From NCBI RefSeq assembly GCF_004803755.1, contig NZ_CP032311.1:3860501-3924500 (forward strand): 64,000 nucleotides of DNA, read 5' to 3'. Positions 42,356 through 60,410 of the stretch are shown piece after piece. A program made the translations under genes and the position numbers. The stretch comes from Pseudomonas sp. DG56-2 (lineage in GTDB: Bacteria; Pseudomonadota; Gammaproteobacteria; Pseudomonadales; Pseudomonadaceae). The stretch's first letter is position 1, and every line of letters starts with the position of its first letter. Under the pieces are notes generated by a model. That model saw only the letters and a list, made by a program, of their open reading frames with translations, had not been told where the DNA came from and did no database searches.

Positions 42356-42357
42356 GG

Positions 42358-42750: not shown

Positions 42751-42790
42751 TTGAAATACACTCCAGCCAATCCCCAAGAAGAGATCGATC

Positions 42791-43015: not shown

Positions 43016-43021
43016 TCGCGC

Positions 43022-43399: not shown

Positions 43400-43402
43400 G
43401 GC

Positions 43403-43837
43403 TTACTCCTTTGGGATCAGGGCCTGCAGGTCGGGCTTGTTGAGGGCGGCGTCGAAGGTGATGCCCTGGGCCGTCAACCACTCCTTCAGCTGCGGGACCT
43501 TCATTTTGTGCGGGTCGGTCTCGTCGTCGCCGCCCTCTGCCTCAATCGCTTTGTCGATCTCGGCCTGGCTGCTCACAGAGGCATAGCCAGCCGGCGGGTA
43601 AGCCGAAGCCTTGTAGCCCTCCGCTACCCACTGGGTGATGGTCGGGCCGTCCAGCCGCAGGCCTTCTTCGATCTCGCTGACGCTGATGCCTTGTCGCTGG
43701 TAGGCCTCCCCAATGTGCGGAGCCTCGCCCTGCACGGACACCGAAGTGGCCCCGTCGATGACGCCAAAGAATTGGTCCAGACGGCGATAGCAGGTACCGC
43801 GCTCGCTGCCCGGGGAGTTGGTGTAGATGACTTTCAT
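43403..43837 (-). CDS. capsid-adjacent protein with C-terminal HeH/SAP-like motif (144 aa)
   Basis: A protein starting MKVIYTNSPGSERGTCYRRL and ending with KMKVPQLKEWLTAQGITFDA followed by NKPDLQALIPK, a helix-extended-loop-helix pattern like the HeH domain found in phage head proteins. GGAG precedes the ATG at 43837. It may decorate the capsid or aid DNA-head contacts; unproven. Confidence 0.65.
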   Translation of the reverse strand: MKVIYTNSPGSERGTCYRRLDQFFGVIDGATSVSVQGEAPHIGEAYQRQGISVSEIEEGLRLDGPTITQWVAEGYKASAYPPAGYASVSSQAEIDKAIEAEGGDDETDPHKMKVPQLKEWLTAQGITFDAALNKPDLQALIPKE

Positions 43838-43883
43838 GGTGAGCTCCTGCACAGGGCGCCAAGTCGGCGCCCCGCATCATGGG

Positions 43884-44861: not shown

Positions 44862-44864
44862 GGA

Positions 44865-45638
44865 TTAGGTTCCTTGGGTGGCTTGCAGTTTTTTGAATGC
44901 TTCGGGGTTGTCGCGAGCGATCGCAGCGCGCTCGGTCTCGGTGTACTCACCCCACTTCTTCGTGGCCTTGCCACCGTTGTCGCCGGTCTGCCCGGCACCC
45001 TGAGCCCTTGGCCACAGGTGTGTGGCGGTTTCGCGCAGCGATTCCGCCCATTCGAGGGGAGACAGCGGGGTCTTGCCATCCTTCCCGTACACGACTTCGC
45101 CGGCACGGTCAGTGGCAATAGGCTCGCCGTCTTCGCTCAGTTTGAAGGTGCCGCGGGCGCGGAGGATGATGTCCTCGGCAGCCTCAGGCAGCGCGCCGGC
45201 CTTGATAGCAGCGGCGCGGATGGAGTCGGCCAGCACCTTGTCGCTGTACTTGGCAGCGAAGGCTTCAGCCTTATCAGCGCGCTCGTTGGCGGCCTTAACC
45301 TGCTTGTCCAGGTCGCCGCGCAGGCGCTCGGTACGGCGGGTAATGACCTCGTCCAGCTTGCCCTCTGCAATCAGCTTGGTCTCTTCGTCCTGGCCTACTT
45401 TGGCCAGCAGGCCCTTCACAGCGTCGATGTCCAGGCCTTCGAACTGGCCCTTCAGCTTGTCGAGCTCAGTCTTGATGGTCTTGTTGGAGCCGATCAGCTC
45501 TTGGTTCTTGGACTTGAGGCCCGAGACCTCGCCGTCCAGAAATTTCTGCACCTCGCCGCCCAGCGCTGCCTTGAGGGCTGCGGTTTGGTTCTCGTCGAGG
45601 GTGAGGCCGTGGGCGGCCGGGTCGAAGTCAAAAGGCAT
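44865..45638 (-). CDS. capsid scaffolding protein
   Basis: A 257-residue highly charged helical protein (MPFDFDPAAHGLTLDENQTAALKAAL, VSGLKSKNQELIGSNKTIKT, TRRTERLRGDLDKQVKAANERA) typical of phage minor structural GP20-type scaffolds. It lies immediately upstream of the capsid gene. AGGGGA precedes the ATG at 45638. Confidence 0.85.
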   Translation of the reverse strand: MPFDFDPAAHGLTLDENQTAALKAALGGEVQKFLDGEVSGLKSKNQELIGSNKTIKTELDKLKGQFEGLDIDAVKGLLAKVGQDEETKLIAEGKLDEVITRRTERLRGDLDKQVKAANERADKAEAFAAKYSDKVLADSIRAAAIKAGALPEAAEDIILRARGTFKLSEDGEPIATDRAGEVVYGKDGKTPLSPLEWAESLRETATHLWPRAQGAGQTGDNGGKATKKWGEYTETERAAIARDNPEAFKKLQATQGT

Positions 45639-45681
45639 GTGGCTATCCCCTGGGGATTGATTGGCCCGCCTGGCGGGCATG

Positions 45682-45704
45682 AAAAAGCCCCGCAATTGCG
45701 AGGC
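45682..45704 (-). terminator. rho-independent terminator between MuF-type gene and scaffold
   Basis: On the minus strand GCCTCGC and GCGGGGC flank a four-base loop, followed by TTTTT. It separates packaging/portal genes from capsid genes, so late antitermination or a fresh promoter must act here. Confidence 0.75.
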
Positions 45705-45712
45705 CTGTAGAT

Positions 45713-45749
45713 CGCGCCACGAAATCGTGGCTCTGCGTTTTGTGGCGCG
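45713..45749. repeat. prophage stem-loop repeat, copy 1
   Basis: Arms CGCGCCACGAAA and TTTTGTGGCGCG (12 bp, one G-T pair) around a 13-base loop, in the gap just beyond the MuF-type gene stop and next to the terminator. Two further copies lie at 51642 and 60259. Confidence 0.8.
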
Positions 45750-45751
45750 GA

Positions 45752-46846
45752 TCAGCTGATTCCGGCCCGATCAAACGCCAACGGTTCCAGCTCCTTGAGC
45801 TTCTCCAGCGTCAGCGGCTTGAAGTTCTTGTCCAGTTGCAGTGCGGCGAAGCGCTCGGCCGTCAGACCGCCATCTCGGAACAGCTTGCCGCGCACAGGCC
45901 CAAGTGCAGCATCCTGAAACGCCGCTGGCTGCGTTTTGAGCCACTGGTAGTAGACGAGACCTGCCGAGACCTGCGCACCGCCGCCAGCCCCCACGGATGC
46001 CCGCGTTGCGCCTTCGGCAAACAGCGCCGACAGCCTGGTTACCGGCACAGTAGTCGAGCGGCAGTTGACGTGTGCCGGCGGCAGCGGCCCCTTCCCTATC
46101 TCGAACTCACGACCGTCCAGACTCTTGCAAAGGGTGCTGGTCTTGCGGTCAAGCGTCGACACCCAGCGATAGCCCGGAATGACATCGGCATTTGCCTTGA
46201 GCGTCTCCATGCGCGCCGTGGTGGCCACATGCTGGACTGCGGTCTGGACGATGGAGCGGGCGTTTCGGTTGCTGACGGCCAGGACGCCGTCGGTGAAATT
46301 CTGTGCTGCGGTACCGCGAATGGCCTGGGTGATCTCGGCGTTGGTCTGCCCCTGCACGACGCCAAGCCGGATGGCGTTGGTTACCCTGGTCGACTCCGTG
46401 CGTGTCCAGCCGTTGAGGAAGGATTTCAGCAGCGTGCCGCCGTCAATCCCCGACACCTGCAGCGGCTGAGTGTTGATCGCCGTCCGGATCAGGGCGTCGG
46501 TCGGCATGATCGCGTCGATCAACAGCGCTTTGGCCAGGCTACGGCCCTCGAAGGCCGCCTCATACAGCGCGATGTCCACCAGGTCGGACTGCATCCGGTC
46601 GCTGAAGGCCTTGTAGATCTCCAGCAGCTTGCCGCCCACCCGCCCAAGGAACTCTTCCAGCCTGCTCCGGCCGTAGGTGGTCAGTTCCTTGCGGGTGAGC
46701 TGGTCACGGACATGGCTGTCAGCTCGGCGCAGGTAGGTTTCGAACTTCTTGACCTCGCCAGCTTTGAGCCGCTCCAGCAGTACCGCGTGCCTACTGACCT
46801 GCTCCAGCAGCACCTCGTCCGCCGTCTGCGTCGGTTTCGTCGCCAT
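45752..46846 (-). CDS. phage head morphogenesis protein (MuF / SPP1 gp7-like)
   Basis: A 364-residue minor head protein. The MuF-type domain is visible at about residues 190-270: TNAEITQAIRGTAAQNFTDG, SIVQTAVQHVATTARME, YRWVSTLDRKTSTLCKSLDG and PPAHVNCRSTTVPV. Such proteins sit at the portal and may be ejected with DNA. The frame overlaps the portal gene by 56 bases; a later start cannot be excluded. Confidence 0.88.
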   Translation of the reverse strand: MATKPTQTADEVLLEQVSRHAVLLERLKAGEVKKFETYLRRADSHVRDQLTRKELTTYGRSRLEEFLGRVGGKLLEIYKAFSDRMQSDLVDIALYEAAFEGRSLAKALLIDAIMPTDALIRTAINTQPLQVSGIDGGTLLKSFLNGWTRTESTRVTNAIRLGVVQGQTNAEITQAIRGTAAQNFTDGVLAVSNRNARSIVQTAVQHVATTARMETLKANADVIPGYRWVSTLDRKTSTLCKSLDGREFEIGKGPLPPAHVNCRSTTVPVTRLSALFAEGATRASVGAGGGAQVSAGLVYYQWLKTQPAAFQDAALGPVRGKLFRDGGLTAERFAALQLDKNFKPLTLEKLKELEPLAFDRAGIS

Positions 46847-48224
46847 CGTCTTTGTCCAGGTTGACGCCGCCCGCGTCGTGGTCGTCGCCGATCAGCTCGG
46901 CCTCTTCGTTGTACGGGCGCTCGGGCAGCTTGCCAGTGGTGAGGTACTGCCAATACGTCTCGGCGCTGATGGTGCCTGCCATGACGCTCTTCTGCAGCTC
47001 GGCCAGCACCTGGGCGCTGACCTCAGGGATCACGAACTCAGGCTTGACCGTGAAGACCACCTCGTCGGGGTTGAAGCCGGTCCACTCTGCGGCGTACCGC
47101 AGGGCCTGCTCGATGGCCTCTGCAGCGGTCATCACGATGCTATGCAGCGTTGCATGCTGGTCGTTCTGGCGGGTTTTGCGGGCCTCGCCCGATTCGGTGC
47201 CTGAGACGTCCATGACCTTGGCGCCAGCTTCGAGCGCGGCGTTCTTCTGGTCGCCCATCGCCGTGCGCACTGCCTGAATGCCAGCGCCCTGGAACTCTAG
47301 GTAGCCGCATTTACCGTTCGGCCCAAGATCCCAGGCCGCAGACGGCCCGGTCACGCTGAGCTCCACACTCTCGTCCAGCCCAGAGACCCACGGCTGCGGG
47401 TGGCTGGTCTGGTGCAGTGCGGTGAAGTAGTCGGCACTGAGCTGGTACGACTTCAGCGCAGCCCGGGCCATGGTCAGCAGCGGGACCTCGTCCACGTCCG
47501 GTGAGTTGTCGGTCGAGCCGCAGTAGATGACCGGGATGTAGCCTAGACCGCGTACCAGATTGGCGTTGCCGTCGACGACACCCAGTGGCCGGTCATCCTC
47601 TACCAGCTCTCCGGCCTCGTTGCGCACGCCAGTGCGGCAGACCGTGCCGTCCATGTAGAACTCGCGATAGACCGTCTCGCATTCGTGGCTGTAGCGGTCC
47701 TGCTCCTTGCGTCTGAACTCGCGGAACACTGACAGCACCAGGTCCTGGCGGCCGCCTTGATCGGCGGTGTCCCAGTTGATCGCATTGCGCACCGCGTAGG
47801 TGGCGAAGTACGGCTGGCCCGCATCATCGATGTTCACTACCAGCGGTACCCGACCATGAGAGATTGCCTGGCGCACGATCCGCAGGAATAGCTGAGTCAA
47901 GCCGAAGCCGTCGGCCGTGGCGTTGTCCTCAAGCCCCTTCAGGCCCGCAGGCAGCTTCACCTCGGGTATCAGCCGCGATACCAAGCCCATCATCGAGCGC
48001 AGCGAGTCACGCACCCAGTGCTCGTACTGAGCGCGGTCAGTGTAGTTACGATAGAGGTAGGCGTTGCCCGGACCGTCCAGCTTTTCGGCCTCGACCATGC
48101 CGCTCGGCTTCGGCAAATTGCGCGGGCTGCGCTTGATGGCGCATTCGCCCTCAAGGGCGTCATCCATCATCCGCCACTCTTCGATGTGAGCGTCGTAGTC
48201 TGGGTTGGTGGATTGAACAGGCAT
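46791..48224 (-). CDS. portal protein (DUF4055 family)
   Basis: A 477-residue protein beginning MPVQSTNPDYDAHIEEWRMM, with GPGNAYLYRNYTDRAQYEHWV, YIPVIYCGSTDNSPDVDEVPL and GAGIQAVRTAMGDQKNAALEAGA. It matches the DUF4055 portals that accompany MuF proteins and DUF2280 small terminases. It forms the dodecameric DNA channel of the head. Its ATG overlaps the terminase stop by one base. Confidence 0.88.
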   Translation of the reverse strand: MPVQSTNPDYDAHIEEWRMMDDALEGECAIKRSPRNLPKPSGMVEAEKLDGPGNAYLYRNYTDRAQYEHWVRDSLRSMMGLVSRLIPEVKLPAGLKGLEDNATADGFGLTQLFLRIVRQAISHGRVPLVVNIDDAGQPYFATYAVRNAINWDTADQGGRQDLVLSVFREFRRKEQDRYSHECETVYREFYMDGTVCRTGVRNEAGELVEDDRPLGVVDGNANLVRGLGYIPVIYCGSTDNSPDVDEVPLLTMARAALKSYQLSADYFTALHQTSHPQPWVSGLDESVELSVTGPSAAWDLGPNGKCGYLEFQGAGIQAVRTAMGDQKNAALEAGAKVMDVSGTESGEARKTRQNDQHATLHSIVMTAAEAIEQALRYAAEWTGFNPDEVVFTVKPEFVIPEVSAQVLAELQKSVMAGTISAETYWQYLTTGKLPERPYNEEAELIGDDHDAGGVNLDKDDGDETDADGGRGAAGAGQ

Positions 48225-49552
48225 TACGCCAAACCTCCGATGCGGCGGGTGCCGGCGGACTGAGTCTTGATCGGGAACCGCTTGGCGATGAAGTAGCCGG
48301 CGGCGTCGTTCATGTGGTCGTGCCCCTTCTTGGGGTCCTTGTCCGGCTCGCCCTTGGCGGTATACGTCTGCCGCTCCAGGCACTGGGTGAGTTGCGGGCA
48401 CTGGTCGATGTTGACCTTCATGCGCCGCTCCCCGTAGGTGTTCAGGAACATGGCGTTGACCGCGTTGATACGGTCCTTCACGCCGGGGTTCTGTGAGTCG
48501 ACCACTACGGTGAAGCCAGCCTTCTTGAGCAGGGACAGGTCCGACTCGCTGGCATTCTTGCTGCTGGTGTTCTGTCCGCTGGCGTCGGGGTAAACGGAGA
48601 CGCTGTGCCCCGAGAAACGCACCTTGATCTTCTCGATCATCTCGGGCGTGTCACGCACCGAGTGGAACTCACCCAACGCCAACGGCAAGCCGTCTCGGAC
48701 CACGTACACAACCGCGGCCATCTTCATGACGTTGAAGTCCATGCCGATGTGTATGGCTTCACCCGGCTTGATGCGCTCACTGGTCCGGCACTCTGCCCTG
48801 TCGAATGTGTAGTAGACGACCCCGGCATAGTTCTCGAACCCTGCCTCGTACTCCTGGCGGAACGTGCGCGGGTCCATCTTGCGCCGGGCAGCGTCCAGCT
48901 CATCGGCCGGGACGTTGCCGCCCTGTAGCGATGTGTACTGCCAGCTCTTGTGGTCAGGCTCGCCGCCCGGCTGCCCGTCGCGGTAAGTGTCGTAGCAGTG
49001 ATTGAAACCCTTCGGGGTGCCGATCCGCAGCGCATGCCCGCCTTTGCGCGACTCTCCGGTCTGCGGGATCGTGTACTGACAGGTCGAAAGCATTGGCCTG
49101 AGAACCTCTTCCCAGGCGGCCCACGGGCAGTCGGCCCACTCGTCCACCAGAACGAAGAACAGGCCAGAGCCCCGCAGGTTGTCGTAGTTGTCCAGGCCGA
49201 CCACGCGCATGATGTGACCGGACTTGAGAGTAATCGAGCACTCTGTCTCGTTCGGCCGTGCTGCGCGCCACGCCTCAGGGATGGCCTGCTTCAGCCGGCG
49301 CCAGAACACCCGCTTGGCCTGCTTGAACGTTGGCGCCCCATACCAGATCTCGTCCTCGACACTCACGCCCCACTCCGCAGCCAGGCGTGCCGCGCGTCGC
49401 ATCTCTGCTTTGCCGAGGAAGGTCTTGCCGAATCGACGCCCACAAACCGCATCACGGAAGCGCGCCTCCGATTGAAAGCCCCAGCAGTAGATGTTCGCTT
49501 GCTTTGGCGTCAGCTTCACCGGCGGGTCATAGGTGCGGGGTAGTCGGGACAT
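48224..49552 (-). CDS. terL: terminase large subunit
   Basis: A 442-residue packaging motor. Walker A is CGRRFGKT (about residues 37-44), Walker B with the catalytic Glu is LFFVLVDEWAD (about 131-141), and the RNase H-fold nuclease has an early acidic motif in HIGMDFNVMKMA and a late one in GHDHMNDAAGYF. The start at 49552 (MSRLPRTYDPPVKLTPKQA) overlaps the small subunit gene by 26 bases. Confidence 0.94.
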   Translation of the reverse strand: MSRLPRTYDPPVKLTPKQANIYCWGFQSEARFRDAVCGRRFGKTFLGKAEMRRAARLAAEWGVSVEDEIWYGAPTFKQAKRVFWRRLKQAIPEAWRAARPNETECSITLKSGHIMRVVGLDNYDNLRGSGLFFVLVDEWADCPWAAWEEVLRPMLSTCQYTIPQTGESRKGGHALRIGTPKGFNHCYDTYRDGQPGGEPDHKSWQYTSLQGGNVPADELDAARRKMDPRTFRQEYEAGFENYAGVVYYTFDRAECRTSERIKPGEAIHIGMDFNVMKMAAVVYVVRDGLPLALGEFHSVRDTPEMIEKIKVRFSGHSVSVYPDASGQNTSSKNASESDLSLLKKAGFTVVVDSQNPGVKDRINAVNAMFLNTYGERRMKVNIDQCPQLTQCLERQTYTAKGEPDKDPKKGHDHMNDAAGYFIAKRFPIKTQSAGTRRIGGLA

Positions 49553-50003
49553 TCTCGTCTGGCTCCAGCTTGTACTCAGCAATGGCGTGCTGCTGGTCCG
49601 CCTGGGAGCCCAGGGGCTTGTCGGGTTCGAGCCGGCGGTTTACGTACACGTCGCCGACCTCTTTGGCTGCTTGCTCCAGTAGCTGGGCAGTCAGCGCCAT
49701 GTTCTTCATGCTCTCGGCCTTCTCGGCCATTCGGCCAAGCGCACGGAGACGGTAGGCACGATGCGCAATGGGGATGTCGGCCGTCTCGGCTGTGAACCGC
49801 TCCCGACATGCATGGAACATGTCCGCCCAACGCTTGGCCAAGCCGCGCCCGGCGTACTTGGTTGGGTCATGCCCTTCGCACACTTGGCGACTGACATCTA
49901 CCCCAAATTCTTTCTTGACGGCCTCCACCACCTGGGACGGTGTATCGAAGCAGGCCAGAGCCTGAACAATGAAGGCTTTGACCTCGCTTCGTAGTGCTGC
50001 CAT
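49527..50003 (-). CDS. terS: terminase small subunit (DUF2280 family)
   Basis: A 158-residue DNA-recognition protein: MAALRSEVKAFIVQALACFD, then TPSQVVEAVKKEFGVDVSRQ, a helix-turn-helix-like start typical of DUF2280, and a helical oligomerisation region (YRLRALGRMAEKAESMKN). It binds the pac/cos site, which commonly lies in or near this gene. It is encoded immediately before terL. Confidence 0.88.
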   Translation of the reverse strand: MAALRSEVKAFIVQALACFDTPSQVVEAVKKEFGVDVSRQVCEGHDPTKYAGRGLAKRWADMFHACRERFTAETADIPIAHRAYRLRALGRMAEKAESMKNMALTAQLLEQAAKEVGDVYVNRRLEPDKPLGSQADQQHAIAEYKLEPDENVPTTPHL

Positions 50004-50034
50004 GTGAATGTCATCCGTCAGGACCTGTCAGGAT

Positions 50035-50631
50035 TCAGGCCGACTTGAGCAGGCAGGTTCCGCAGGCCCTCGAAATGTTGATTTTGGCCACCTCGGGCGG
50101 CCGGCTTGCAGCGTCGATTAGCTGCTGAACGTCTTCCCCTGCCCCGTAGCGACGAACTACGCCGACGAACTCCTCGATGTCGTGTCCGCGCATCTGGAGC
50201 TTGGGGAGACCTTCCTGGGTGAACTTGGGTGCGCCGTACTGATCGGTCGCCTGGGCGATGTGGTAAAGCTCGTGCTCGACCAGAGCGCAGAACTCGCCAT
50301 CAGTACACTTCGCGCAGTAGTCAGCGGCTAGGGTTATCAGGTAATCCGGTTCTTCAACGAACCACTCCCGCATCTGCTGCTCTTGTCGGGCCTTCTGCCA
50401 ACCGCCAGCGCGGAACATGACCTGCTCAGCCTGGCCCAGCACCACCCTTCCCTGCTTGGCAAAACCAGAGGATGCCCAAAGCACGCCTATGCGGGCGTCG
50501 ATCAGGTGTGCGTGCTCTTCGTTGTGGATGCTGCCAGTGTCGGCAAGGACCTCGGCCTGTATCCACTCCCATGCCTCTGGAGCAGGTTTCAGGGTGAGGA
50601 ATGGCGAGTCGAGCAGATCGACCGGCGGCAT
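50035..50631 (-). CDS. putative phage zinc metallopeptidase
   Basis: A 198-residue protein with a zinc motif HELYH (in CALVEHELYHIAQATDQYG) and a cysteine cluster at the C-terminus (ISRACGTCLLKSA). It matches a family of putative phage metallopeptidases found next to terminase genes in Pseudomonas phages. The substrate is unknown. The start at 50631 (MPPVDLLDSPFL) is preferred to a TTG/GTG-type upstream codon; its Shine-Dalgarno is modest. Confidence 0.75.
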   Translation of the reverse strand: MPPVDLLDSPFLTLKPAPEAWEWIQAEVLADTGSIHNEEHAHLIDARIGVLWASSGFAKQGRVVLGQAEQVMFRAGGWQKARQEQQMREWFVEEPDYLITLAADYCAKCTDGEFCALVEHELYHIAQATDQYGAPKFTQEGLPKLQMRGHDIEEFVGVVRRYGAGEDVQQLIDAASRPPEVAKINISRACGTCLLKSA

Positions 50632-50716
50632 TGGTCTGCTCAAAAGGACCACCTGAAACTTGAATTGGTAACGGCCAACCAGTATTGGTTACAGGAGATC
50701 CAAGCGAGGCTCCGAT

Positions 50717-50914
50717 ATGCAAGACCGGTTCATCGTCGTCAATTCCAGGCCGCTGGAAGGCATAAGGCCGCGCAACCCCTCCGAGCCACCGCACTGGAAG
50801 GTGCATGGCTATCGAATATTGGATACGCGGAACGACAAAAGGCTGCCAGAACTCTACCCGAACCGAGCAGAGGCCCAGGCAGAGTGCGATAGGCGAAATG
50901 GGAGGCAACGTTAG
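50717..50914 (+). CDS. plus-strand small gene near terminase (65 aa)
   Basis: A basic 65-residue protein (MQDRFIVVNSRPLEGIRPRN, then HWKVHGYRILDTRNDKRLPEL and YPNRAEAQAECDRRN) on the strand opposite to the late operon, with a GAGG site before its ATG. The YPNRAEAQAECDR pattern occurs in small Pseudomonas phage proteins. It is a second candidate moron. Function unknown. Confidence 0.65.
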   Translation: MQDRFIVVNSRPLEGIRPRNPSEPPHWKVHGYRILDTRNDKRLPELYPNRAEAQAECDRRNGRQR

Positions 50915-50917
50915 GCG

Positions 50918-51172
50918 CTAACCTTCCCCACCATCCAGCAGCACATCAATCAGCTTCTGCTCGCCGAGCCGCATTGCACCCAGGCATTGCAGGTCGTCGC
51001 ACTTGGGGCCCAGCCCAAACACCGTCACCTCGCCTTTCGGGCCCATGAGGGTCAGCGCGCCTACAGTGCATTCCGGATGCACACCGGCATCGAGGTCATC
51101 GGCGATCTTACGCAGGGTCTTGGCAGCATCGCGCCAGTCCTCCCGCTTGAACTCAACGAGCTTCGCGGTCAT
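50918..51172 (-). CDS. small phage protein (84 aa), unknown
   Basis: A protein MTAKLVEFKREDWRDAAKTLRK followed by ADDLDAGVHPECTVGALTLMG and DDLQCLGAMRLGEQKLIDVLL. It is soluble and conserved-looking; no domain recognised. Its ATG overlaps the stop of the gene upstream by four bases, making it third in a small cluster that begins with the Acb2-like gene. Confidence 0.7.
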   Translation of the reverse strand: MTAKLVEFKREDWRDAAKTLRKIADDLDAGVHPECTVGALTLMGPKGEVTVFGLGPKCDDLQCLGAMRLGEQKLIDVLLDGGEG

Positions 51173-51393
51173 ACAGTCACCTTCTGTAACCACTCTTCAA
51201 TGATCCGGCGCAGAACTGGCTCGGTCAGGATGGCTGATGGCTTGTCGCCGGCGATCACCGAGCGCACTAGGTCACAAGGCAGCACATGGACACCGTCAAC
51301 AGCCGCAACAGTCAGATGCGGACGCCGCTCAGCGATATCGTGAATGTCCGCGGTGACTGGGCGCGCGCAATCAAGGCGGGTTCCGCTTCTCAT
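51169..51393 (-). CDS. small phage protein (74 aa), unknown
   Basis: A protein beginning MRSGTRLDCARPVTADIHDI and ending with LTEPVLRRIIEEWLQKVTV. Its ATG at 51393 overlaps the stop of the full-length Acb2-like frame by one base (TGATG), which argues that this frame was once translated to its end. Function unknown. Confidence 0.65.
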   Translation of the reverse strand: MRSGTRLDCARPVTADIHDIAERRPHLTVAAVDGVHVLPCDLVRSVIAGDKPSAILTEPVLRRIIEEWLQKVTV

Positions 51394-51623
51394 CAACTGA
51401 ATGGGTCGGCAGGCTTGGCAATGGAGCGCACAAACCACATGAAGCCCTGCTGCAGGTTGGTTTTGGCCAAGGCCAGGGTGCGCTGGTCCACGCCTTCGAT
51501 CTAGCCGATCTGCTTGAACAGCTCACCGGCGTCGGCCTCCAGGGCCTTGATCGAGTTCATGCCGTCGATCTCGCTCTGGGTGAGGTCGCGGTAGCCGGTG
51601 ATCTTTTTGTGCTGGTTGTCCAT
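51393..51623 (-). pseudogene. acb2: Acb2/Tad1-like cyclic-nucleotide sponge gene interrupted by an in-frame amber codon
   Basis: The frame from ATG 51623 encodes 40 residues (MDNQHKKITGYRDLTQSEID, then GMNSIKALEADAGELFKQIG), a TAG at 51501-51503, and continues in the same frame for 35 residues (IEGVDQRTLALAKTNLQQGF, then MWFVRSIAKPADPFS) to TGA at 51393. The two halves together, 76 codons, match the Acb2/Tad1 hairpin family of small phage proteins that sequester cyclic di- and trinucleotide signals of CBASS immunity; YRDLTQ.EID..N and DQR....A.T.LQQGFM..VR..A.P are its recurrent features by memory. A GAGGGT ribosome binding site and the TGATG link to the next gene are intact. It may be a recent null allele, a readthrough gene, or a sequencing error. 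Confidence 0.72.
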
Positions 51624-51641
51624 GGGTGACCCTCAGGTTGT

Positions 51642-51678
51642 CGCGCCACGAAACGGCGCACCTTGAATTTGTGGCGCG
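51642..51678. repeat. prophage stem-loop repeat, copy 2
   Basis: Arms CGCGCCACGAAA and ATTTGTGGCGCG around a 13-base loop, filling the gap between the second holin stop (51681) and the start of the Acb2-like gene (51623). Related to copies at 45713 and 60259. Confidence 0.8.
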
Positions 51679-51680
51679 AG

Positions 51681-52028
51681 CTACCGCTTGCGCCGCTCGA
51701 TCCCGCCCGGCCCGAATCGGCAATCCTTCAGGCAGTGCTCGCAGTTCAACGTTCGACACAGCCAGGCCTTCACCCTCTGCCACCAGATCACCATGAAGAT
51801 GTGCCGGACGCCGGCCAAGGCCAGGGTCACGTGCATGGTGAGCACCGCAGTGGTCTGACCGAAGAAGATACTCTGATTGCGGCTCATCACGACGAAGCCG
51901 CTGATGGCGATCGCTGAATAGATCAGCTTACCAATGATGCCGTCCCGCACCTTGCCGCTCAGCACGCACCAGGTCGCCCAGAAGGCGATCAGGCCGCATG
52001 CGACGGCGTTGATCAGGTCAAAGTTCAT
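51681..52028 (-). CDS. phage membrane protein, second holin or antiholin
   Basis: A 115-residue protein with three hydrophobic segments (NAVACGLIAFWATWCVLSG, IGKLIYSAIAISGFVVM, AVLTMHVTLALAGVRHIFMVIWW) and a basic, cysteine-containing tail (RTLNCEHCLKDCRFGPGG). It overlaps the upstream holin gene by four bases (ATGA). Paired holin-like genes are usual in Pseudomonas phages; which one forms the hole is unknown. Confidence 0.75.
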   Translation of the reverse strand: MNFDLINAVACGLIAFWATWCVLSGKVRDGIIGKLIYSAIAISGFVVMSRNQSIFFGQTTAVLTMHVTLALAGVRHIFMVIWWQRVKAWLCRTLNCEHCLKDCRFGPGGIERRKR

Positions 52029-52354
52029 GGCTGGTTGCCTCCCCCGAACCTCTGGCGGATAAGTGCCCAAAGGTCAGCGGCTTTAATGGCCCGGTTGATG
52101 GCTGCCAGGAGCGAGCCACCGAACGTGCCGAGCAGGAACCCTACCCCGGCAACGATGTTCGGTTCAGTGACGCCGAGGTAAGCGCTGACCATGCCCGTCA
52201 GGTACAAGGCGCAGGCCACACCCGTGATCAGAAAGATCAGCCAAGCGCGCCAGTCGGTCAGGTCGTCCTTGTGCCACCAACTGGCAACGATCACGCCGAA
52301 CAAACCAGCAATCAGCAGATCAAGCCTGTCGAGCAGGCGGTGCAAATACTCCAT
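52025..52354 (-). CDS. phage holin
   Basis: A 109-residue protein with three predicted membrane helices (LLIAGLFGVIVASWW, AWLIFLITGVACALYLTGMV, NIVAGVGFLLGTFGGSLLAAI) and a charged C-terminus, typical of a class I holin. The start at 52354 (MEYLHRLLDRLDL) removes a non-hydrophobic upstream extension. Its endolysin partner lies 25 kb away at 26372. Confidence 0.82.
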   Translation of the reverse strand: MEYLHRLLDRLDLLIAGLFGVIVASWWHKDDLTDWRAWLIFLITGVACALYLTGMVSAYLGVTEPNIVAGVGFLLGTFGGSLLAAINRAIKAADLWALIRQRFGGGNQP

Positions 52355-52676
52355 GCGCTCGACTCCGTGGGCACGATTGGATTTAGAACGGCTCACACAG
52401 CACTCCCAGCTCGGAGCAATGGGTGTGGCGGAGCCGAAAACAGAAAGGCCCCGATCAATGTCGAGGCCCTGAATAGGTGTGCGGTCTTTCCCGCCGTCTG
52501 CCAAAGACCATCCCAGCGCTGGCACCCTACTGCACCAGTCTCGCCGATCCGGTCTCGCGCCACCCATGAAGCGTACAGGGCATGGGTGCGCGGGCTGCCG
52601 GTGTTATTCCGTAGCACTGTACTACCGGCTTATCAGTGTCCAGGCCTCCCCGAAGGCTGCCCTGGCTGCAGTGAAT
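52355..52676 (-). other. gene-free stretch before the holins; candidate late leader
   Basis: About 320 bases without a convincing gene; a 74-codon frame at 52393-52617 has non-protein-like composition. A terminator-like hairpin lies at 52436-52468. The layout of short leader plus terminator before lysis and terminase genes resembles a Q-antiterminated late promoter region. No promoter was identified with confidence. Confidence 0.4.
52436..52468 (-). terminator. terminator-like hairpin in the late leader
   Basis: On the minus strand GGCCTCGA and TCGGGGCC (8 bp with one G-T pair) around a six-base loop, followed by TTTCTGTTTT. It would stop transcription before the holins unless antiterminated. 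Confidence 0.6.
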
Positions 52677-52916
52677 TCAAATAGCTGGCGAGATGTCCAC
52701 GTAGTAGGCCTTGCCTACCTCCATCTTCTCTGCAACCTCAGTGACGATGCCGGCGCGGAACTCGCCATATGGCGTGTACTTGCCGTAGATCGCGTCTTCG
52801 GTTTCGGGATCACTGGAGTAGACGGCGCCGAGGCGAACAGTGCAGAGCTGGCCCTGACTGTGCTCATTCGGCGTGACTTCGTGGCAGATCATCTTGCAGC
52901 GCATGCGATGCGACAT
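52677..52916 (-). CDS. small phage protein (79 aa), unknown
   Basis: A protein MSHRMRCKMICHEVTPNEHS followed by CTVRLGAVYSSDPETEDAIY and ending FRAGIVTEVAEKMEVGKAYYVDISPA. The spaced Tyr/Asp pattern is typical of small beta-barrel phage proteins found before the lysis region. AGGGGA precedes the ATG at 52916. Function unknown. Confidence 0.72.
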   Translation of the reverse strand: MSHRMRCKMICHEVTPNEHSQGQLCTVRLGAVYSSDPETEDAIYGKYTPYGEFRAGIVTEVAEKMEVGKAYYVDISPAI

Positions 52917-52971
52917 AGCGGTTCCCCTGGATTGTGCAGGTTGGCCTATCAGTCTTTCGCCTGCTGAGAAC

Positions 52972-52998
52972 GAAAAAACCCGGCTCAAGGGCCGGGTT
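52972..52998 (-). terminator. rho-independent terminator between early and late small genes
   Basis: On the minus strand AACCCGGC and GCCGGGTT flank a six-base loop, followed by TTTT and more. It lies downstream of the 196-residue protein gene, closing the early operon. Confidence 0.85.
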
Positions 52999-53076
52999 CT
53001 TCGGGATGTTTGCCAAAGGCAAAACTATAACAATGGCGAAATCATGCCACTACGCGTGCGGGAACGCAATAGGCCC

Positions 53077-53667
53077 TCAAGCGGCCTCCTTCATTTCGTA
53101 CAAAACGGCCCCGATTGGCGATAGCGCCTTCTTGTCGATGTCCTCGCACACCTCAAAGCAGATCTCCACGAAAGGCTCCCAATCCCTGGCCCATGCGCAC
53201 GATGGAAGACTCACGCCGTAGACATCATCAATCCATTTCTTGAACCACTCAGGGCTTGCGAATGGATCTTCACAGGAAGACTGCCCGCCCTGGTGCATGC
53301 GGCGGTACCGGAACATGACACCCTTGGCGACGTACATGCATCGCTCACGCTTGGCAGCAGTCATGCGTGGTGACCGACTCACTGCCAGATTGAAAACCGT
53401 TTCCTCGGCTGACTCACGATCATCATCACTGCAGTGCGGCGCGTACATGAAATTTCCGAAGGTTCGCACCTGGTCATGAAGTCGGCCGATAGCGGCTTGC
53501 ACCTGCCCAGCCAGCGCCTGGTGCACTGCATGGCTCGCGCTGCGCTGCTTGTCAGTGGTCTGCACCATGGCGCCCAGTAGGCCCAACTGCTCGATGAATG
53601 AACCCTGGCTGTCCCAGGCCGTGTACAGGCAGTCGTGCCAGGCTTGGCGTGCGCTGTTCAGTTGCAT
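53077..53667 (-). CDS. phage protein at the end of the early operon (196 aa), possible late regulator
   Basis: A soluble protein (MQLNSARQAWHDCLYTAWDS, AIGRLHDQVRTFGNFMYAPH, MTAAKRERCMYVAKGVMFRYRRMHQGG, WARDWEPFVEICFEVCEDID). Its position, last in the early operon and followed by a terminator before the lysis and terminase genes, is where lambdoid phages carry antiterminator Q. No Q motif is recognised, so a late regulator is only a positional guess. Confidence 0.7.
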   Translation of the reverse strand: MQLNSARQAWHDCLYTAWDSQGSFIEQLGLLGAMVQTTDKQRSASHAVHQALAGQVQAAIGRLHDQVRTFGNFMYAPHCSDDDRESAEETVFNLAVSRSPRMTAAKRERCMYVAKGVMFRYRRMHQGGQSSCEDPFASPEWFKKWIDDVYGVSLPSCAWARDWEPFVEICFEVCEDIDKKALSPIGAVLYEMKEAA

Positions 53668-53789
53668 GGGCCGCCCTCCTCACGCTTGCGTTTGGCGACG
53701 ATAACCATGCCACGCACGATGCAGTAGGCGCCCAAGATGACCATGCCCAAGAGAAACAGCTGAGCGGTGTCGAGCGGTGTCCAGTTCAT
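53658..53789 (-). CDS. small membrane protein (43 aa)
   Basis: A 43-residue frame, MNWTPLDTAQLFLLGMVILG then AYCIVRGMVIVAKRKREEGG, with one membrane helix and a positive C-terminus. It overlaps the upstream gene by four bases and the downstream gene by ten, the tight packing typical of phage early genes. Function unknown. Confidence 0.6.
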   Translation of the reverse strand: MNWTPLDTAQLFLLGMVILGAYCIVRGMVIVAKRKREEGGPCN

Positions 53790-54049
53790 GCTGCTTGCTC
53801 CTTGCCGATTTGCTTCTCGCACTTCTTGCAGCGCGTCCAGTTGCCAGCCTCAAACATCGGCGTCCGGCTGCCGGTGAACGCATCAACTCCGCAGAGCGAC
53901 CTCCAGGCATAACAGTGGCCGCCATCGGTGTCTGGGGCGGATCGCTCCTGCACGAAGAAGTGCGCCCGCACCGAAAATGGAAAAGCAGGCTTTAGCCAGC
54001 CGCGCTCTGCTGTGCTGGCTGGCCCAGTGATCATCACTACCTGGTTCAT
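53786..54049 (-). CDS. small phage protein (87 aa) with CxxC motif
   Basis: A protein MNQVVMITGPASTAERGWLK with a C-terminal TRCKKCEKQIGKE zinc-ribbon-like CxxC pair and an upstream aromatic region (HCYAWRSLCGVDAF). It may bind zinc or nucleic acid. Its ATG overlaps the preceding 25-codon frame by four bases. Confidence 0.65.
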   Translation of the reverse strand: MNQVVMITGPASTAERGWLKPAFPFSVRAHFFVQERSAPDTDGGHCYAWRSLCGVDAFTGSRTPMFEAGNWTRCKKCEKQIGKEQAA

Positions 54050-54123
54050 GCAGCCTCCTTCAGCTGTTTGATCTTTGCCCGGTACTCGGCCTTGATGGCC
54101 TTGAGGTCGTCGATGGTGTTCAC
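54046..54123 (-). CDS. 25-codon frame, probably the displaced C-terminus of NinG
   Basis: GTG-initiated frame directly after the HNH gene stop, encoding NTIDDLKAIKAEYRAKIKQL then KEAA. NinG-type proteins end with a helix of this kind (acidic start, DLK.I...YR.K...L). It ends ATGA-coupled to the next gene. It most likely is the original 3' end of ninG left behind when the endonuclease gene was inserted; GAGGG precedes it, so it might be translated as a peptide. Confidence 0.5.
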   Translation of the reverse strand: MNTIDDLKAIKAEYRAKIKQLKEAA

Positions 54124-54126
54124 GCG

Positions 54127-54759
54127 CTACGCCCTCAAGTGCGGCAGGCTGTGCTCGTCCAAGTAGTCATTCCGGGCCTTCACGGCGTCACTGATGGTCT
54201 TGAAGCGGCCCAGATGTATCTGCTTTTTCTTCCACTGCACTTTTGCGCACCACCTGCCTCGATCCCAGGAAACCCCAACATGACCGCTGGTGTTTTTATC
54301 TGTGATTCTTCGATTCGCTGCTTGAACGTTGTAATCCGCGTACCTGCAGTTTTCCGGCGAATAGCCCTTGCTTGAATCGATGCGATCCAGCGTCAGCCGA
54401 TCGGTGTAACCATTCGCAAGTGACCACTCCATGAATGGCTCGAAGCTCATCCACTCTTCGCAAAGCGTCACTCCGCCATACTTTTGGACCTCGGCGCCCT
54501 GCGGGTTTAGGCAGCGCCGCTTCATGTTTGACCAGGTGACGTGGAGGCGACTGTTTCTGTTGTTCAGCCCATGGGTAACTCGCTTTCGCCCAGCGGCCTT
54601 GTTCGCGCAAGAGATACAAAGCCCGGTCATGACCTTCGCCCTTTCCATCCTCGACTCAAACTCAGTTGAACACTCAGGGCAGCGGAAGACGCCAATAGAC
54701 CTTCTACTCCCAGACCGCTCCGAAATTGATTTGCGAACCAGAATCACACGGCTATCCAT
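54127..54759 (-). mobile_element. HNH homing endonuclease with AP2-type C-terminal domain
   Basis: A 210-residue protein: an N-terminal zinc-ribbon-like pair (FRCPECSTEF ... CISCANKAAG), an HNH core (MKRRCLNPQGAEVQKYGGVTLCEEWMSFEPFMEWS, then LTLDRIDSSKGYSPENCRYA) and an AP2-like C-terminal domain (TSGHVGVSWDRGRWCAKVQW). Its codon use looks more AT-rich than its neighbours. GAGG precedes the ATG at 54759. It overlaps the end of ninG by 16 bases, the mark of a free-standing homing gene inserted in a phage gene. The longer open frame upstream is only ninG in another frame. Confidence 0.88.
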
Positions 54760-55349
54760 GACATCGCCTCCCCATTTCTTTTTTCGATGCACCTGGCTTT
54801 CCTGGTGAAGATTTCCTTCACCCTTTTCAGGTAAGTGATGTCGTGGCGCGCTATGCCGTTGCTGCACTCCAGCCAGTCGACCTTCTCCTGCCCGATCTTC
54901 TCGATGAGCGCGGGCCGGTAGGCCATGATGTTTCCGCTCAAGAAGTTGTTGCAGGCACTGCATGACTTGTTCATGTTCCAGAGGTTGAACCGCAGGTGCG
55001 GGGCCGCGCCTACGCTGCGGAAGTGCGAGCAGTGCCACTGCCCTTGCCATGCGGCTGACTTGTCGCAGCTGATGCAGCCCAGATGCGCGTCTCGCAGCCG
55101 TACATAGCGATTGACCGCGGCCTGGGCTTCTTTGGCATAGTCTGCCCGGCTCTTGAGTTTCTCCTTGCGTACCTGGATCTCGCGGCGCGCGCGCTGGTCG
55201 ATGGCCTTCCGGGCTTTGTCGTGATTCACTGGCGCCAAGGCCAGGGCACACTTCACGCTGCAGGCCTTCTGCGTCGACAGCGATGGCCGGAACTTCCCGC
55301 CGCAGGACTTGCAGGTCTTCTGCTTCACTTCCTTGAGAGCTACGCGCAC
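54744..55349 (-). CDS. ninG: NinG recombination protein (lambda Rap-like)
   Basis: A 201-residue DNA junction endonuclease family member: a zinc motif at the start (QKTCKSCGGKFRPSLSTQKACSVKCALALA), an Arg/Lys-rich helix (AIDQRARREIQVRKEKLKSRADYAKEAQ), and an HNH-like region with CISCDKSAAWQGQWHCSHFRSVG and NKSCSACNNFLSGN. The C-terminal part (HDITYLKRVKEIFTRKARCIEKR) runs into the HNH gene start; the protein end may have been replaced by the insertion. Confidence 0.88.
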   Translation of the reverse strand: MRVALKEVKQKTCKSCGGKFRPSLSTQKACSVKCALALAPVNHDKARKAIDQRARREIQVRKEKLKSRADYAKEAQAAVNRYVRLRDAHLGCISCDKSAAWQGQWHCSHFRSVGAAPHLRFNLWNMNKSCSACNNFLSGNIMAYRPALIEKIGQEKVDWLECSNGIARHDITYLKRVKEIFTRKARCIEKRNGEAMSWIAV

Positions 55350-55618
55350 GGTTCAGCCTCCTTGGCTTTCTGCTGCTCGGGGGCGAAGTCGCCGCGCAGG
55401 GGCATGAGCCATTTTCCCCAGACGATGGCCTTGTCTTCGCTGACCACCCACACGACCTCGCCGCCTTCCTTCTCGTAGACGCCAGGGTCCATCGGGTCTC
55501 TTCGGTCAACGGGTCCGACGCAGTGGCGGCTGATCAGCTCTACGCAGGTTCCGATCACTGGCGGAAACGTGTGATTGAGTACCAGCGCCAGGTCACCCGG
55601 CTTGAATTGATGGCTCAT
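55340..55618 (-). CDS. small phage protein (92 aa), unknown
   Basis: A protein MSHQFKPGDLALVLNHTFPP, then GTCVELISRHCVGPVDRRDP and VVWVVSEDKAIVWGKWLMPL. The KPGDLALV...G..VEL pattern resembles small SH3-like barrels common in phage nin regions. It is linked to NinB by an ATGA overlap and overlaps ninG by ten bases. Confidence 0.7.
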   Translation of the reverse strand: MSHQFKPGDLALVLNHTFPPVIGTCVELISRHCVGPVDRRDPMDPGVYEKEGGEVVWVVSEDKAIVWGKWLMPLRGDFAPEQQKAKEAEPCA

Positions 55619-56061
55619 GCAGCCCTCCCGCGGCGCTCGCCGTAGATCGCCATCATCAGGTCCTCTGGATGCGGTAGGAGCAGCTGCAGGCTCTCGGCGC
55701 AGTAAGCGTCCAGAAGCTCCAGGTACTGAGTCATCTGCTGGGTGCTGAACTTGCGGGTCTTGGCCCGGCCTACGCGGTACCGGGTGCCATCGGGCAGCTC
55801 CACCGGGTGAACCTCGGCCGGCCAGAGCTTGGCCACCAGAATCTCGTGCCATTCCTCGCTGCTTGCTGCCTGGCCGTAGGAATCGCGCAGGTGCTCCTGG
55901 ATCAGGCCGTTCCACATCCACAGCAGGCGGTTCTGGGCATCGCTGCGCTTGTTGCGCACCTCGACGATGGTCAGGCGGCGCGGCTTGGCCAGGTCCAGAC
56001 CGGTGAGGTATCCAATCAGGCGGGCGCGGTCTTGCTCGGTGCGGAGCATGAGGTCAGTCAT
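55615..56061 (-). CDS. ninB: NinB recombination protein
   Basis: A 148-residue protein (MTDLMLRTEQDRARLIGYLT, TIVEVRNKRSDAQNRLLWMW, EWHEILVAKLWPAEVHPVELPDG, FSTQQMTQYLELLDAYCAE), clearly of the NinB/Orf family that binds single-stranded DNA and assists recombination in place of RecFOR. The start at 56061 overlaps the preceding stop. Confidence 0.92.
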   Translation of the reverse strand: MTDLMLRTEQDRARLIGYLTGLDLAKPRRLTIVEVRNKRSDAQNRLLWMWNGLIQEHLRDSYGQAASSEEWHEILVAKLWPAEVHPVELPDGTRYRVGRAKTRKFSTQQMTQYLELLDAYCAESLQLLLPHPEDLMMAIYGERRGRAA

Positions 56062-56482
56062 GGGATGCCTCCTTGGCCATGGACTCATCAACAACCGCAT
56101 CCGCCATTCCGCTGAACAACGGCATCTTCCCCTCGTTCCAGATCGCCAACGGCGAGCTGGTACCAATCGGGTTGCGAACGAAGCGGTACCGCTCGGCATC
56201 CTTGCGCAGCGCCTCATTCTCGGCCTTTAGCTGGTCGACCTGCTTGCCGCGCTCCTCGGATGCGAAGCTCACACGGTTGTAGTTGGCGCATACCTGCTCA
56301 TGTGATTCACGAAGTTGCTCGATCTCCTCGAGAAGGGCCAGGACACCGCCGGGCTGTGTTAGCGCCTCGTAGTCCGCCACATGCTGCTGGAAGTCACGGG
56401 CCTCGCTGTCGGTAAGGCAACCATCGACATCGCGGAGCATGATTTCGGCCAGCGCCTTCAGCTTCTCTTTGTCGATGATCAT
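56054..56482 (-). CDS. phage protein with coiled coil, Ea22-like (142 aa)
   Basis: A protein with a central coiled coil (LLEEIEQLRESHEQVCANYN, ERGKQVDQLKAENEALRKDA) followed by ERYRFVRNPIGTSSPLAIWN, the ending typical of Ead/Ea22-type phage proteins. It starts MIIDKEKLKALAEIML and overlaps both neighbours. Function unknown. Confidence 0.72.
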   Translation of the reverse strand: MIIDKEKLKALAEIMLRDVDGCLTDSEARDFQQHVADYEALTQPGGVLALLEEIEQLRESHEQVCANYNRVSFASEERGKQVDQLKAENEALRKDAERYRFVRNPIGTSSPLAIWNEGKMPLFSGMADAVVDESMAKEASHD

Positions 56483-56817
56483 GGCTTCACCTTCAGGCCT
56501 TGGGCCTCGATCGCTTGACGGCACTTCCGATAGGTCTGGCACTGGGCGCCATGGCGAGCCTCCAAATAACGGAACTCTTCCGACTCCCGATCTACGGGCT
56601 CATCGATGTAGACTTCGGGCAAATCTGGCTCAGGCAGCTCCACCACTACGGCCTCGCGGGAGGCCTGCCAGAACAGCCAGTAGCACTGAGCGGCATAGTT
56701 CAGGTACTCGCCATCCTCGCCCTTGGCCAGATGACCGGGGAACAGCCCACCCTCAGAGCTGAGCGCAAACTTCTCGAACTGCTCGCGCACGCTGTCGCGC
56801 ATCTTGTTGGTGTCCAT
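56479..56817 (-). CDS. phage protein (112 aa), unknown
   Basis: A protein MDTNKMRDSVREQFEKFALS with AAQCYWLFWQASREAVVVELPEP, a pattern seen repeatedly in small nin-region proteins (AW..WQASR). Coupled to both neighbours. No enzymatic motif. Confidence 0.72.
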   Translation of the reverse strand: MDTNKMRDSVREQFEKFALSSEGGLFPGHLAKGEDGEYLNYAAQCYWLFWQASREAVVVELPEPDLPEVYIDEPVDRESEEFRYLEARHGAQCQTYRKCRQAIEAQGLKVKP

Positions 56818-57077
56818 CAGTGCTTCTCCTCGGCCAGGTACTCGTGGCAAAGCTTGCCCGTGGTCTTGTGCTCAAGATTTCCTTGGCGGTTGGTGAAGAA
56901 CTCACCCTTAGGCAGGTATTCACGCTTGAACACGCCATGCCACTTGCCGATGCTTGGGTCGCAGGCCGCACACAGCTTTCGGCCTTGGCATGGATTTCCC
57001 TCGTCGCTGCGGAACCAGTAGCCGCTGGTAGCGGTGTTGTCGCGGCAACCGCACTCTTCACACTGAAACAGGCTCAC
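56817..57077 (-). CDS. small zinc-finger-like phage protein (86 aa)
   Basis: A GTG-initiated protein with paired cysteines (FQCEECGCRDNTATSGYW, GRKLCAACDPSIGKWHG, TGKLCHEYL), likely zinc binding. Its GTG overlaps the stop of a 23-codon frame (GTGA) within a GGGGAGGGGG-rich site. Function unknown. Confidence 0.7.
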   Translation of the reverse strand: MSLFQCEECGCRDNTATSGYWFRSDEGNPCQGRKLCAACDPSIGKWHGVFKREYLPKGEFFTNRQGNLEHKTTGKLCHEYLAEEKH

Positions 57078-57145
57078 ACCCCCTCCCCAGCCGGCTGCCC
57101 GGCGCGCTTGATGTTAAACTTGGCCAGCAGGTGGGCACGGCTCAT
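57074..57145 (-). CDS. possible 23-residue peptide
   Basis: Frame MSRAHLLAKFNIKRAGQPAG then EGV, coupled at both ends (ATGA to the nuclease gene, GTGA to the zinc-finger gene). The tight coupling supports translation, but a product this short is uncertain. Confidence 0.35.
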   Translation of the reverse strand: MSRAHLLAKFNIKRAGQPAGEGV

Positions 57146-57795
57146 GCTGCACCTCGCTGAGAAAGGCGGAATTGCTGACGATCGAGGAACCACTTGATGC
57201 CTCTCTCACAAACGCTAGGGGCAGGGAGAGAGGCCATGCGCTCGGCATTTACCGGGGCATGCGTCTCGCGCAGGCACTGTTCCATGTCAGATCGATCAGC
57301 CATGCCAAGAAACAGTTCTTCCAGGATGTCGCCGATAGGCCGGACGTTATCCATGATGTCGCCCTTGGCTGCGGCGCTGATGCGCTCCCACATCCCATAG
57401 TCGCCGTGGTCGCGTACCAAGCAATGAAGGTCGTAAGGGCAAATTCCATTCGTCCAGCCGCCCGAGCCGCGCACAAGCATTCCGCAGTTCATGAGGCCTT
57501 CACGGTCGGATTCAGGTCGCCCAACCAAGAACATGACTTCTCGACCGGTGCGCTCCATCACTGCATCGGCTTTCTGGATCTCGATATCGGTCGGGTTCTT
57601 TCCTTTCACCTCTAGGTAGATACCCACGTTCGGCAGCCAGAAATCAGGCAGGTAGTAGCCCTCATCGACTCGTACTAGATCAGGCTCGTACAGGTAGAAA
57701 ATCTCGGCAGCCTCAAGCACGCGAGCCCAAAGCAGCTCGGTGTAGGAACGAAGGCGGTAGCCGTTGTGGTGGTAGATCGCTCTGCGCTCTCTCAT
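57142..57795 (-). CDS. PD-(D/E)XK-type phage nuclease (217 aa)
   Basis: The N-terminal 70 residues have the layout of a PD-(D/E)XK endonuclease: Glu20 in RLRSYTELLWARVL, Asp51 in YYLPDFWLP and E62-V-K64 in IYLEVKGKNP. The C-terminal part is unassigned (GDIMDNVRPIGDILEELFLG). It is encoded between DnaB and the nin genes, so a role in phage DNA processing is plausible. Its start abuts the helicase stop. Confidence 0.75.
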   Translation of the reverse strand: MRERRAIYHHNGYRLRSYTELLWARVLEAAEIFYLYEPDLVRVDEGYYLPDFWLPNVGIYLEVKGKNPTDIEIQKADAVMERTGREVMFLVGRPESDREGLMNCGMLVRGSGGWTNGICPYDLHCLVRDHGDYGMWERISAAAKGDIMDNVRPIGDILEELFLGMADRSDMEQCLRETHAPVNAERMASLPAPSVCERGIKWFLDRQQFRLSQRGAA

Positions 57796-60335: not shown

Positions 60336-60393
60336 AATTCACCTCAAGAGTTTTATGTGAAGCAGAGAGCCGGGCCGCAATCCCGGCTTTTTT
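60312..60393 (+). ncRNA. candidate antisense RNA in the OOP position
   Basis: A plus-strand -10-like TATACT (60312-60317), then about 70 bases antisense to the ribosome binding site and start of the 73-residue gene, ending in a rho-independent terminator at 60368-60393. A weak -35 leaves the promoter uncertain. The position, opposite to the operon between the repressor-proximal small genes and the initiator gene, equals that of lambda OOP RNA. Confidence 0.45.
60368..60393 (+). terminator. plus-strand rho-independent terminator
   Basis: AGCCGGG and CCCGGCT around a seven-base loop followed by six T on the plus strand. All genes around it are on the minus strand, where no T-tract follows the stem. 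Confidence 0.8.
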
Positions 60394-60410
60394 GTGCCTG
60401 TAATTTAGAG

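What the first reader, a model, noticed from the sequence alone, without database searches (positions are those of the whole stretch)
51393..51623. Acb2/Tad1-like anti-CBASS sponge gene with an in-frame amber codon
Hidden because the stop splits it into two short frames. The first 40 codons and the next 35 codons lie in one frame, both halves fit the Acb2/Tad1 hairpin family, the ribosome binding site is good, and the true stop overlaps the next gene start (TGATG). A CAG to TAG change would explain it. Either the sponge was lost recently, is made by amber readthrough, or the base is an error. It would mean the prophage family carries counter-defence against cyclic-nucleotide immunity.
Basis: partly seen in the sequence, partly recalled or inferred. 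Interest (0 to 1): 0.8.

Follow-up and report, generated by a model that had tools for sequence, protein, structure and literature searches.

The report
Broken anti-CBASS sponge gene in prophage
A Pseudomonas prophage carries a gene for a small protein (Acb2) that phages use to soak up bacterial alarm molecules, but a stop codon cuts it in half, so it is probably switched off; similar cut copies turn up in other phages, which hints that phages lose this counter-weapon again and again.

Summary
On the minus strand, 51393-51623 is one 76-codon frame interrupted only by an amber at codon 41 (51501-51503), with a good ribosome site and a TGATG overlap with the next gene. Read with X at the stop it is Acb2: PF24729 70.4 bits (cut-off 27; halves 26.1 and 40.3), solved Acb2 at E 4e-13. 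A natural intact homologue folds as the Acb2 hairpin, and the stop falls at its turn.

Intact copies are common; both halves are under strong purifying selection (pN/pS 0.03-0.04). The stop-making base is the only one of the window allele found in 2% or fewer of 155 other alleles, so it is recent or an error. Readthrough is poorly supported: stops differ in place and kind among alleles and no amber-suppressor tRNA was found. Best reading: a natural null allele, as in phage PaMx41, whose acb2 also ends early.

The part worth following is recurrence: stops at codons 26, 37, 41 (twice, one the window's twin) and 43 among 83 alleles, against none in 322 neighbouring-gene sequences.

The parts
51393..51623 (-). 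Acb2-family frame, 76 codons, interrupted by an in-frame amber at codon 41
   Evidence: translation; PF24729 70.4 bits with X at the stop; solved Acb2 E 4.2e-13
51501..51623 (-). 5' half: the 40-codon open frame as it would be translated, ending in TAG 51501-51503
   Evidence: PF24729 26.1 bits alone, below the cut-off of 27
51393..51500 (-). 3' half: codons 42-76 and the TGA stop (second hairpin helix)
   Evidence: PF24729 40.3 bits alone
51630..51634 (-). ribosome-binding-site-like GAGGG upstream of the acb2 ATG
   Evidence: sequence; SD-like motif in 146 of 155 distinct family stretches
51169..51393 (-). next gene, 74 aa, phrog_30574 (unknown function); its ATG overlaps the acb2 TGA (TGATGA)
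   Evidence: TGATG at the end of 68 of 155 relatives
51681..52028 (-). holin-family gene upstream of acb2
   Evidence: phrog_2508 matched over 1-99/99, (scanned as 51681-52070)
52025..52354 (-). second holin-family gene
   Evidence: phrog_2359 matched over 1-109/110, (scanned as 52025-52567)
48224..49582 (-). terminase large subunit, open frame
   Evidence: phrog_10250 and phrog_2; the stop in the alignment to a relative lies before the conserved part
24577..62055 (.). prophage from integrase (24577-25791 +) to CI-like repressor (61150-62055 +); exact ends not determined

Best explanation
This is a natural, probably recent null allele of an Acb2 cyclic-nucleotide sponge in an otherwise intact-looking Pseudomonas prophage. 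Shown: the homology, the single amber, the position of the stop at the hairpin turn of a modelled homologue, intact copies in relatives, and purifying selection on both halves of the family. Inferred: the ribosome stops after 40 residues; the N-terminal segment and first helix are made without the second helix; the hexamer that traps cyclic nucleotides does not form; and phage released from this lysogen is Acb2-negative. Also inferred: the loss is tolerated because the present host shows no CD-NTase that the sponge could serve against, or it was favoured earlier in a host that senses sponges (Panoptes).
For: Frame and stop. Family. Helices 16-40 and 47-68 in the model of a natural intact homologue put codon 41 at the turn. 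In the best 80 viral loci (of 328), 79 have a sense codon at 41 and no stop; the one with TAG (L044) is identical to the window over 10,228 bases. pN/pS is 0.033 in codons 2-40 and 0.041 in codons 42-75 over 152 intact alleles (first 8,000 sequence pairs only). The stop base is the window's only base seen in 2% or fewer of 155 other alleles. PaMx41 ORF24 stops after 36 codons; two reviews (passages) say that CBASS-resistant PaMx41 mutants have a lengthened gp24. Host: 0 matches to SMODS, AGS_C and mCpol. Holin, terminase, portal and head-morphogenesis genes of the window match their families in open frames, and stops in alignments to relatives' frames lie outside the genes.
Against: No expression or binding data. 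A sequencing error would look the same. The three domain searches do not exclude every cyclic-nucleotide defence in the host, and the mCpol control rang in only 1 of 14 genomes, below the cut-off.
Confidence: 0.78

Rival explanations
1. Amber readthrough: the ribosome sometimes reads through the TAG, so a low level of full-length sponge is made.
For: The C half is unmutated relative to common family members. In-frame stops inside bacterial genes that keep selection have been reported as widespread (PMC7918605; only the start of its abstract was seen, in the listing).
Against: The stop is not a conserved site: intact relatives have sense codons, and other alleles have stops at 26, 37 and 43, one of them TAA. 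No tRNA gene in the window; 44 genome places with an amber-anticodon-like pattern gave only tRNA-Gly and tRNA-Arg by ARAGORN. The conserved C half is equally explained by a young stop.
Confidence: 0.07
2. The TAG is a sequencing or assembly error and the gene is intact.
For: Its base is the only near-private base of the allele; the identical record L044 may be the same assembly under another name.
Against: One-contig genome rated 100% complete. Frames of 1328 and 1138 codons in the same prophage are open. A stop in the same gene is seen in separate data: L250, L319 and L321 share TAA43, with 6 differences over 2,328 bases between L250 and L321.
Confidence: 0.11
3. The 36-42 residue N-terminal product is itself functional (a mini-protein or half sponge), and stops at the hairpin turn are kept for it.
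For: The nonsense alleles outside remnants whose surroundings I looked at stop at 37, 37, 41 and 43 (PaMx41, L137, window, L321). The N segment carries most of the invariant residues. phrog_29522 is a 42-residue family that matches this half at 96 bits.
Against: L379 stops at codon 26. PaMx41 with the 36-residue form is described as gaining CBASS resistance when lengthened. The second helix is missing. The clustering is post hoc: chance is about 0.014-0.020 for 4 of 5. phrog_29522 may simply be the TAA43 product.
Confidence: 0.04

Closest known systems
Acb2 of Pseudomonas phage PaMx33 (ORF24, 93 codons before the stop) and PaP2 p26; PDB 8h2j, 8h2x
   Same: Hairpin fold; N-terminal MDNQHKKI.GYRDL; phage gene; 52 bits by sequence, and the first structure matches
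   Different: The window copy has a shorter turn (76 codons) and is cut by an amber at codon 41
PaMx41 ORF24, natural short acb2 allele
   Same: In-frame TAG near the end of the first hairpin helix, in a Pseudomonas phage; the frame continues after it
   Different: Podophage of P. aeruginosa, stop at codon 37, long-loop Acb2; reviews describe CBASS-resistant mutants with a lengthened product
T4 Vs.4 (Acb2), PDB 7uq2
   Same: Same domain and fold
   Different: 24-25% identity in the structural alignment of a homologue; intact; loss-of-function alleles, premature stops included, escaped Panoptes in the laboratory
Intact acb2 of Pseudomonas prophages (for example L030, L112)
   Same: 97-99% of residues; TGATG ending in 68 of 155
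   Different: No stop inside

Membership tests
Acb2 (anti-CBASS 2) | PF24729 hairpin domain over the curated cut-off | tested here: met
   70.4 bits with X at the stop; halves 26.1 (below 27) and 40.3
Acb2 (anti-CBASS 2) | one short N segment and two long antiparallel helices as in 8h2j | tested here: met
   For a natural intact homologue, not for the cut copy: helices 16-40 and 47-68; first 8 PDB matches are Acb2 or Vs.4, best Foldseek E 1.2e-3, probability 1.00
Acb2 (anti-CBASS 2) | complete open frame giving the whole hairpin | tested here: not met
   TAG at codon 41. So: a broken member, not a working Acb2
Acb2 (anti-CBASS 2) | binds cyclic di- and trinucleotides as a hexamer | not testable with these tools
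   needs protein
Acb2 (anti-CBASS 2) | conserved pocket residues | tested here: inconclusive
   Y11 and K26 are invariant in the 11-row alignment A1 and present in the window; that they are pocket residues of PaMx33 Acb2 is recalled. T4 Y8A is reported to lose binding.
Tad1 | N-terminal beta-sheet of four strands before the helical hairpin (as described in PMC12043709) | tested here: not met
   Only 15 residues and no strand of 3 or more before helix 16-40
Programmed amber readthrough or suppression | stop kept at the same place in relatives | tested here: not met
   79 of 80 best viral relatives are open; the 80th is identical to the window; other alleles stop at other codons
Programmed amber readthrough or suppression | amber-suppressor tRNA in phage or host | tested here: inconclusive
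   0 tRNA genes in the window; none among 44 pattern places in the genome. The pattern covers common tRNA shapes only, and one tRNA-Cys-like stretch (L210) was not called by ARAGORN

The most novel reading that the evidence does not exclude
acb2 is a gene that Pseudomonas phages repeatedly switch off by single nonsense mutations, mostly at the hairpin turn. Off alleles are favoured in hosts that sense sponges (Panoptes-like guards) and on alleles in hosts with CBASS, so the gene flickers while its neighbours stay intact.
Probability: 0.2. Interest if true: 0.68.

Novelty: new member of a known kind. Interest (0 to 1): 0.4.

Why it matters
Acb2 sits between two opposite pressures: CBASS favours keeping it, Panoptes favours losing it. 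The Panoptes paper argues from phage T2 and PaMx41 that this conflict happens in nature (PMC12657218, passages). The window and its relatives add natural broken alleles in other Pseudomonas phages and prophages, and give a first count (5 nonsense and 1 frameshift in 83 distinct alleles; one of the five is the window's twin). In the window and in L137 the neighbouring genes look intact. That makes the conflict testable by comparing hosts and alleles. It also warns that an acb2 hit does not mean a working sponge.

Tried and rejected
Panoptes in the present host as the selective cause: mCpol gave 0 of 1 and 0 of 30 acb2-bearing genomes. Its control rang in 1 of 14 genomes, below the cut-off, so absence is likely but not certain. 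Cap15 receptor domain PF18153: nothing in the host, but nothing rang in any control, so that answer is empty.

CBASS in acb2-bearing hosts: SMODS in 2 of 30 genomes, neither of them the window's.

A second TAG at the same codon (L111) first looked like parallel evolution in a live phage. It lies in a decaying remnant shared with L028 (98.9% over 1,500 bases), where the end of acb2 is replaced; I count it but give it little weight.

Clustering of stops at the turn: 4 of 5 in codons 37-46, chance 0.014-0.020 depending on the transition weight. The interval was chosen after seeing the data, and the window is the index case.

Row L259 was counted as a stop by the script; it is that homologue's natural end, so I leave it out.

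Three collection scans returned nothing because I miscounted a gap in the pattern. One search is the corrected scan, for the GAC class at codon 2 only; the GAT class was not scanned to completion.

Full report
What is there. On the minus strand the frame 51623-51393 reads 40 codons, TAG, 35 codons, TGA. A GAGGG sequence precedes the ATG, and the TGA overlaps the ATG of the next gene, a 74-codon frame. TGATG at this place is seen in 68 of 155 relatives. The gene lies in the lysis and packaging stretch of a prophage: two holin-family genes, acb2, small genes of 74 and 91 codons, a plus-strand frame of 65 codons, genes of 205 and 158 codons, then terminase large subunit, portal and head morphogenesis. 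Integrase and tail genes lie to the left, replication genes and repressor to the right.

What it is. With X at the stop the frame scores 70.4 bits against PF24729 (cut-off 27); the halves score 26.1 and 40.3. By sequence it matches the solved Acb2 p26 at E 4.2e-13 and T4 Vs.4 at 4.7e-4. An AlphaFold2 model of a natural intact homologue (L030, alignment of 11, mean pLDDT 83.8) has helices 16-40 and 47-68, and its eight best PDB matches are all Acb2 or Vs.4 (best Foldseek E 1.2e-3, probability 1.00; none at E 0.001 or better). The stop at codon 41 is therefore at the turn. The Pseudomonas prophage branch is 76 codons long, shorter in the loop than PaMx33 Acb2.

Relatives. tblastn found the protein in 218 phage records (60 listed) and in 328 stretches of viral contigs, of which the best 80 were kept. 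Of these 80, 79 have a sense codon at position 41 and no stop. The other, L044, carries the same TAG but is identical to the window over all 10,228 bases held, so it is not independent. In the genus search 27 of 298 genomes matched; 6 of the 27 rows, the window's included, have a stop inside and two more are short fragments. With the Pfam profile 28 of 398 matched, 3 with a stop inside, the window's included.

Age and selection. Over 152 intact alleles pN/pS is 0.033 for codons 2-40 and 0.041 for codons 42-75 (the first 8,000 sequence pairs). Against L032 the window differs by 14 synonymous changes and no non-synonymous one, besides the stop codon. The only base of the window allele found in 2% or fewer of 155 other alleles is the one that makes the stop. 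So the stop is young, or an error.

Recurrence. A scan anchored on the first 24 codons (GAC at codon 2) returned 105 stretches and reported no limit. The matching viral loci gave 86 distinct sequences; 3 were too short and dropped. Of 83, 77 are open, 5 have a nonsense codon (26, 37, 41, 41, 43) and 1 is frameshifted. One of the five is the window's own twin (L044/L110). The codon-37 allele is that of Pseudomonas lini DSM 16768 (L137, identical to L357 over 5,450 bases). Of 25 matches of relatives' frames in L137, 5 hold a stop: acb2 itself and four where the stop lies at the start or end of the aligned frame, outside the conserved part. The codon-43 allele is in three metagenome contigs, one with 6 differences over 2,328 bases from another; the neighbouring frames of L321 mostly match full length. 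The second codon-41 allele (L111) is in a remnant. The surroundings of the codon-26 allele (L379) were not examined. In the tree the window and L111 lie apart (distance 0.18; L111 is sister to L379, support 0.956), so these look like separate events. The viral loci held gave 322 distinct sequences of nine neighbouring genes at 80% coverage or more with no internal stop; for acb2 there were 181, with 3 in-frame stops after leaving out the window's twin (a fourth row, L259, is a natural end). Fisher's test gives 0.0034 by codons and 0.046 by sequences. The by-sequence result is weak, and frameshifted or truncated neighbours would have been missed by the coverage rule.

Mechanism. The simplest account is that this copy makes a 40-residue fragment and no sponge. 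PaMx41 is the direct precedent: its annotated ORF24 is 111 bases ending in TAG, and the frame goes on beyond it. PMC10419184 and PMC12043709 (passages only) describe CBASS-resistant PaMx41 mutants with a lengthened gp24. PMC12657218 (passages) reports that 14 of 15 T4 escapers of Panoptes carried mutations exclusively in acb2, premature stops among the mutations, and names T2 and PaMx41 as natural cases. PMC12657230 (passages) reports loss-of-function mutations in acb1 or acb2 in three T4-like phages naturally resistant to Panoptes. The window's host has no match to SMODS, AGS_C or mCpol, so the sponge has no obvious target there now; whether the stop was selected or drifted cannot be told.

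Readthrough. There is no tRNA gene in the window. An amber-anticodon tRNA pattern gave 44 places in the genome, fewer than its reversed control (88); ARAGORN on the 44 loci found one tRNA-Gly and one tRNA-Arg. ARAGORN did not call one tRNA-Cys-like stretch (L210), so this is not a perfect screen. Stops differ in place and kind among alleles. A programmed event is therefore unlikely.

Novelty. Searches of the held library listed no paper that I saw to describe nonsense alleles of acb2 in Pseudomonas prophages; the primary Acb2 paper is not held, and supplements were not searched. I file it as a new member of a known kind: a natural broken acb2.

Noticed in passing
phrog_29522 (matched by 51501-51623): A 42-residue phage family of unknown function that matches the N half at 96 bits is probably the truncated product of acb2 alleles with a stop at codon 43 (as in L250, L319, L321), not a separate family. 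Its member list was not seen.
   Followed up: partly
phage records PP003914, MT354570, MK511058 and others: Features under acb2 matches are annotated as 'Rz-like spanin' or 'NAD/FAD-utilizing enzyme', which hides the gene.
   Followed up: no
L111 and L028: Two remnants 98.9% alike over 1,500 bases carry acb2 cut at different points (after codons 57 and 17) and followed by the same non-acb2 sequence; it looks like stepwise decay of one remnant.
   Followed up: partly
L149 and L150 (Pseudomonas parakoreensis contigs): Two contigs end inside acb2 at codon 30, so near-identical copies may exist in that genome and break the assembly.
   Followed up: no
window 50035-50652 -: A 205-codon gene near the terminase matches phrog_513, labelled 'transposase', an odd label for a gene in the packaging stretch.
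   Followed up: no
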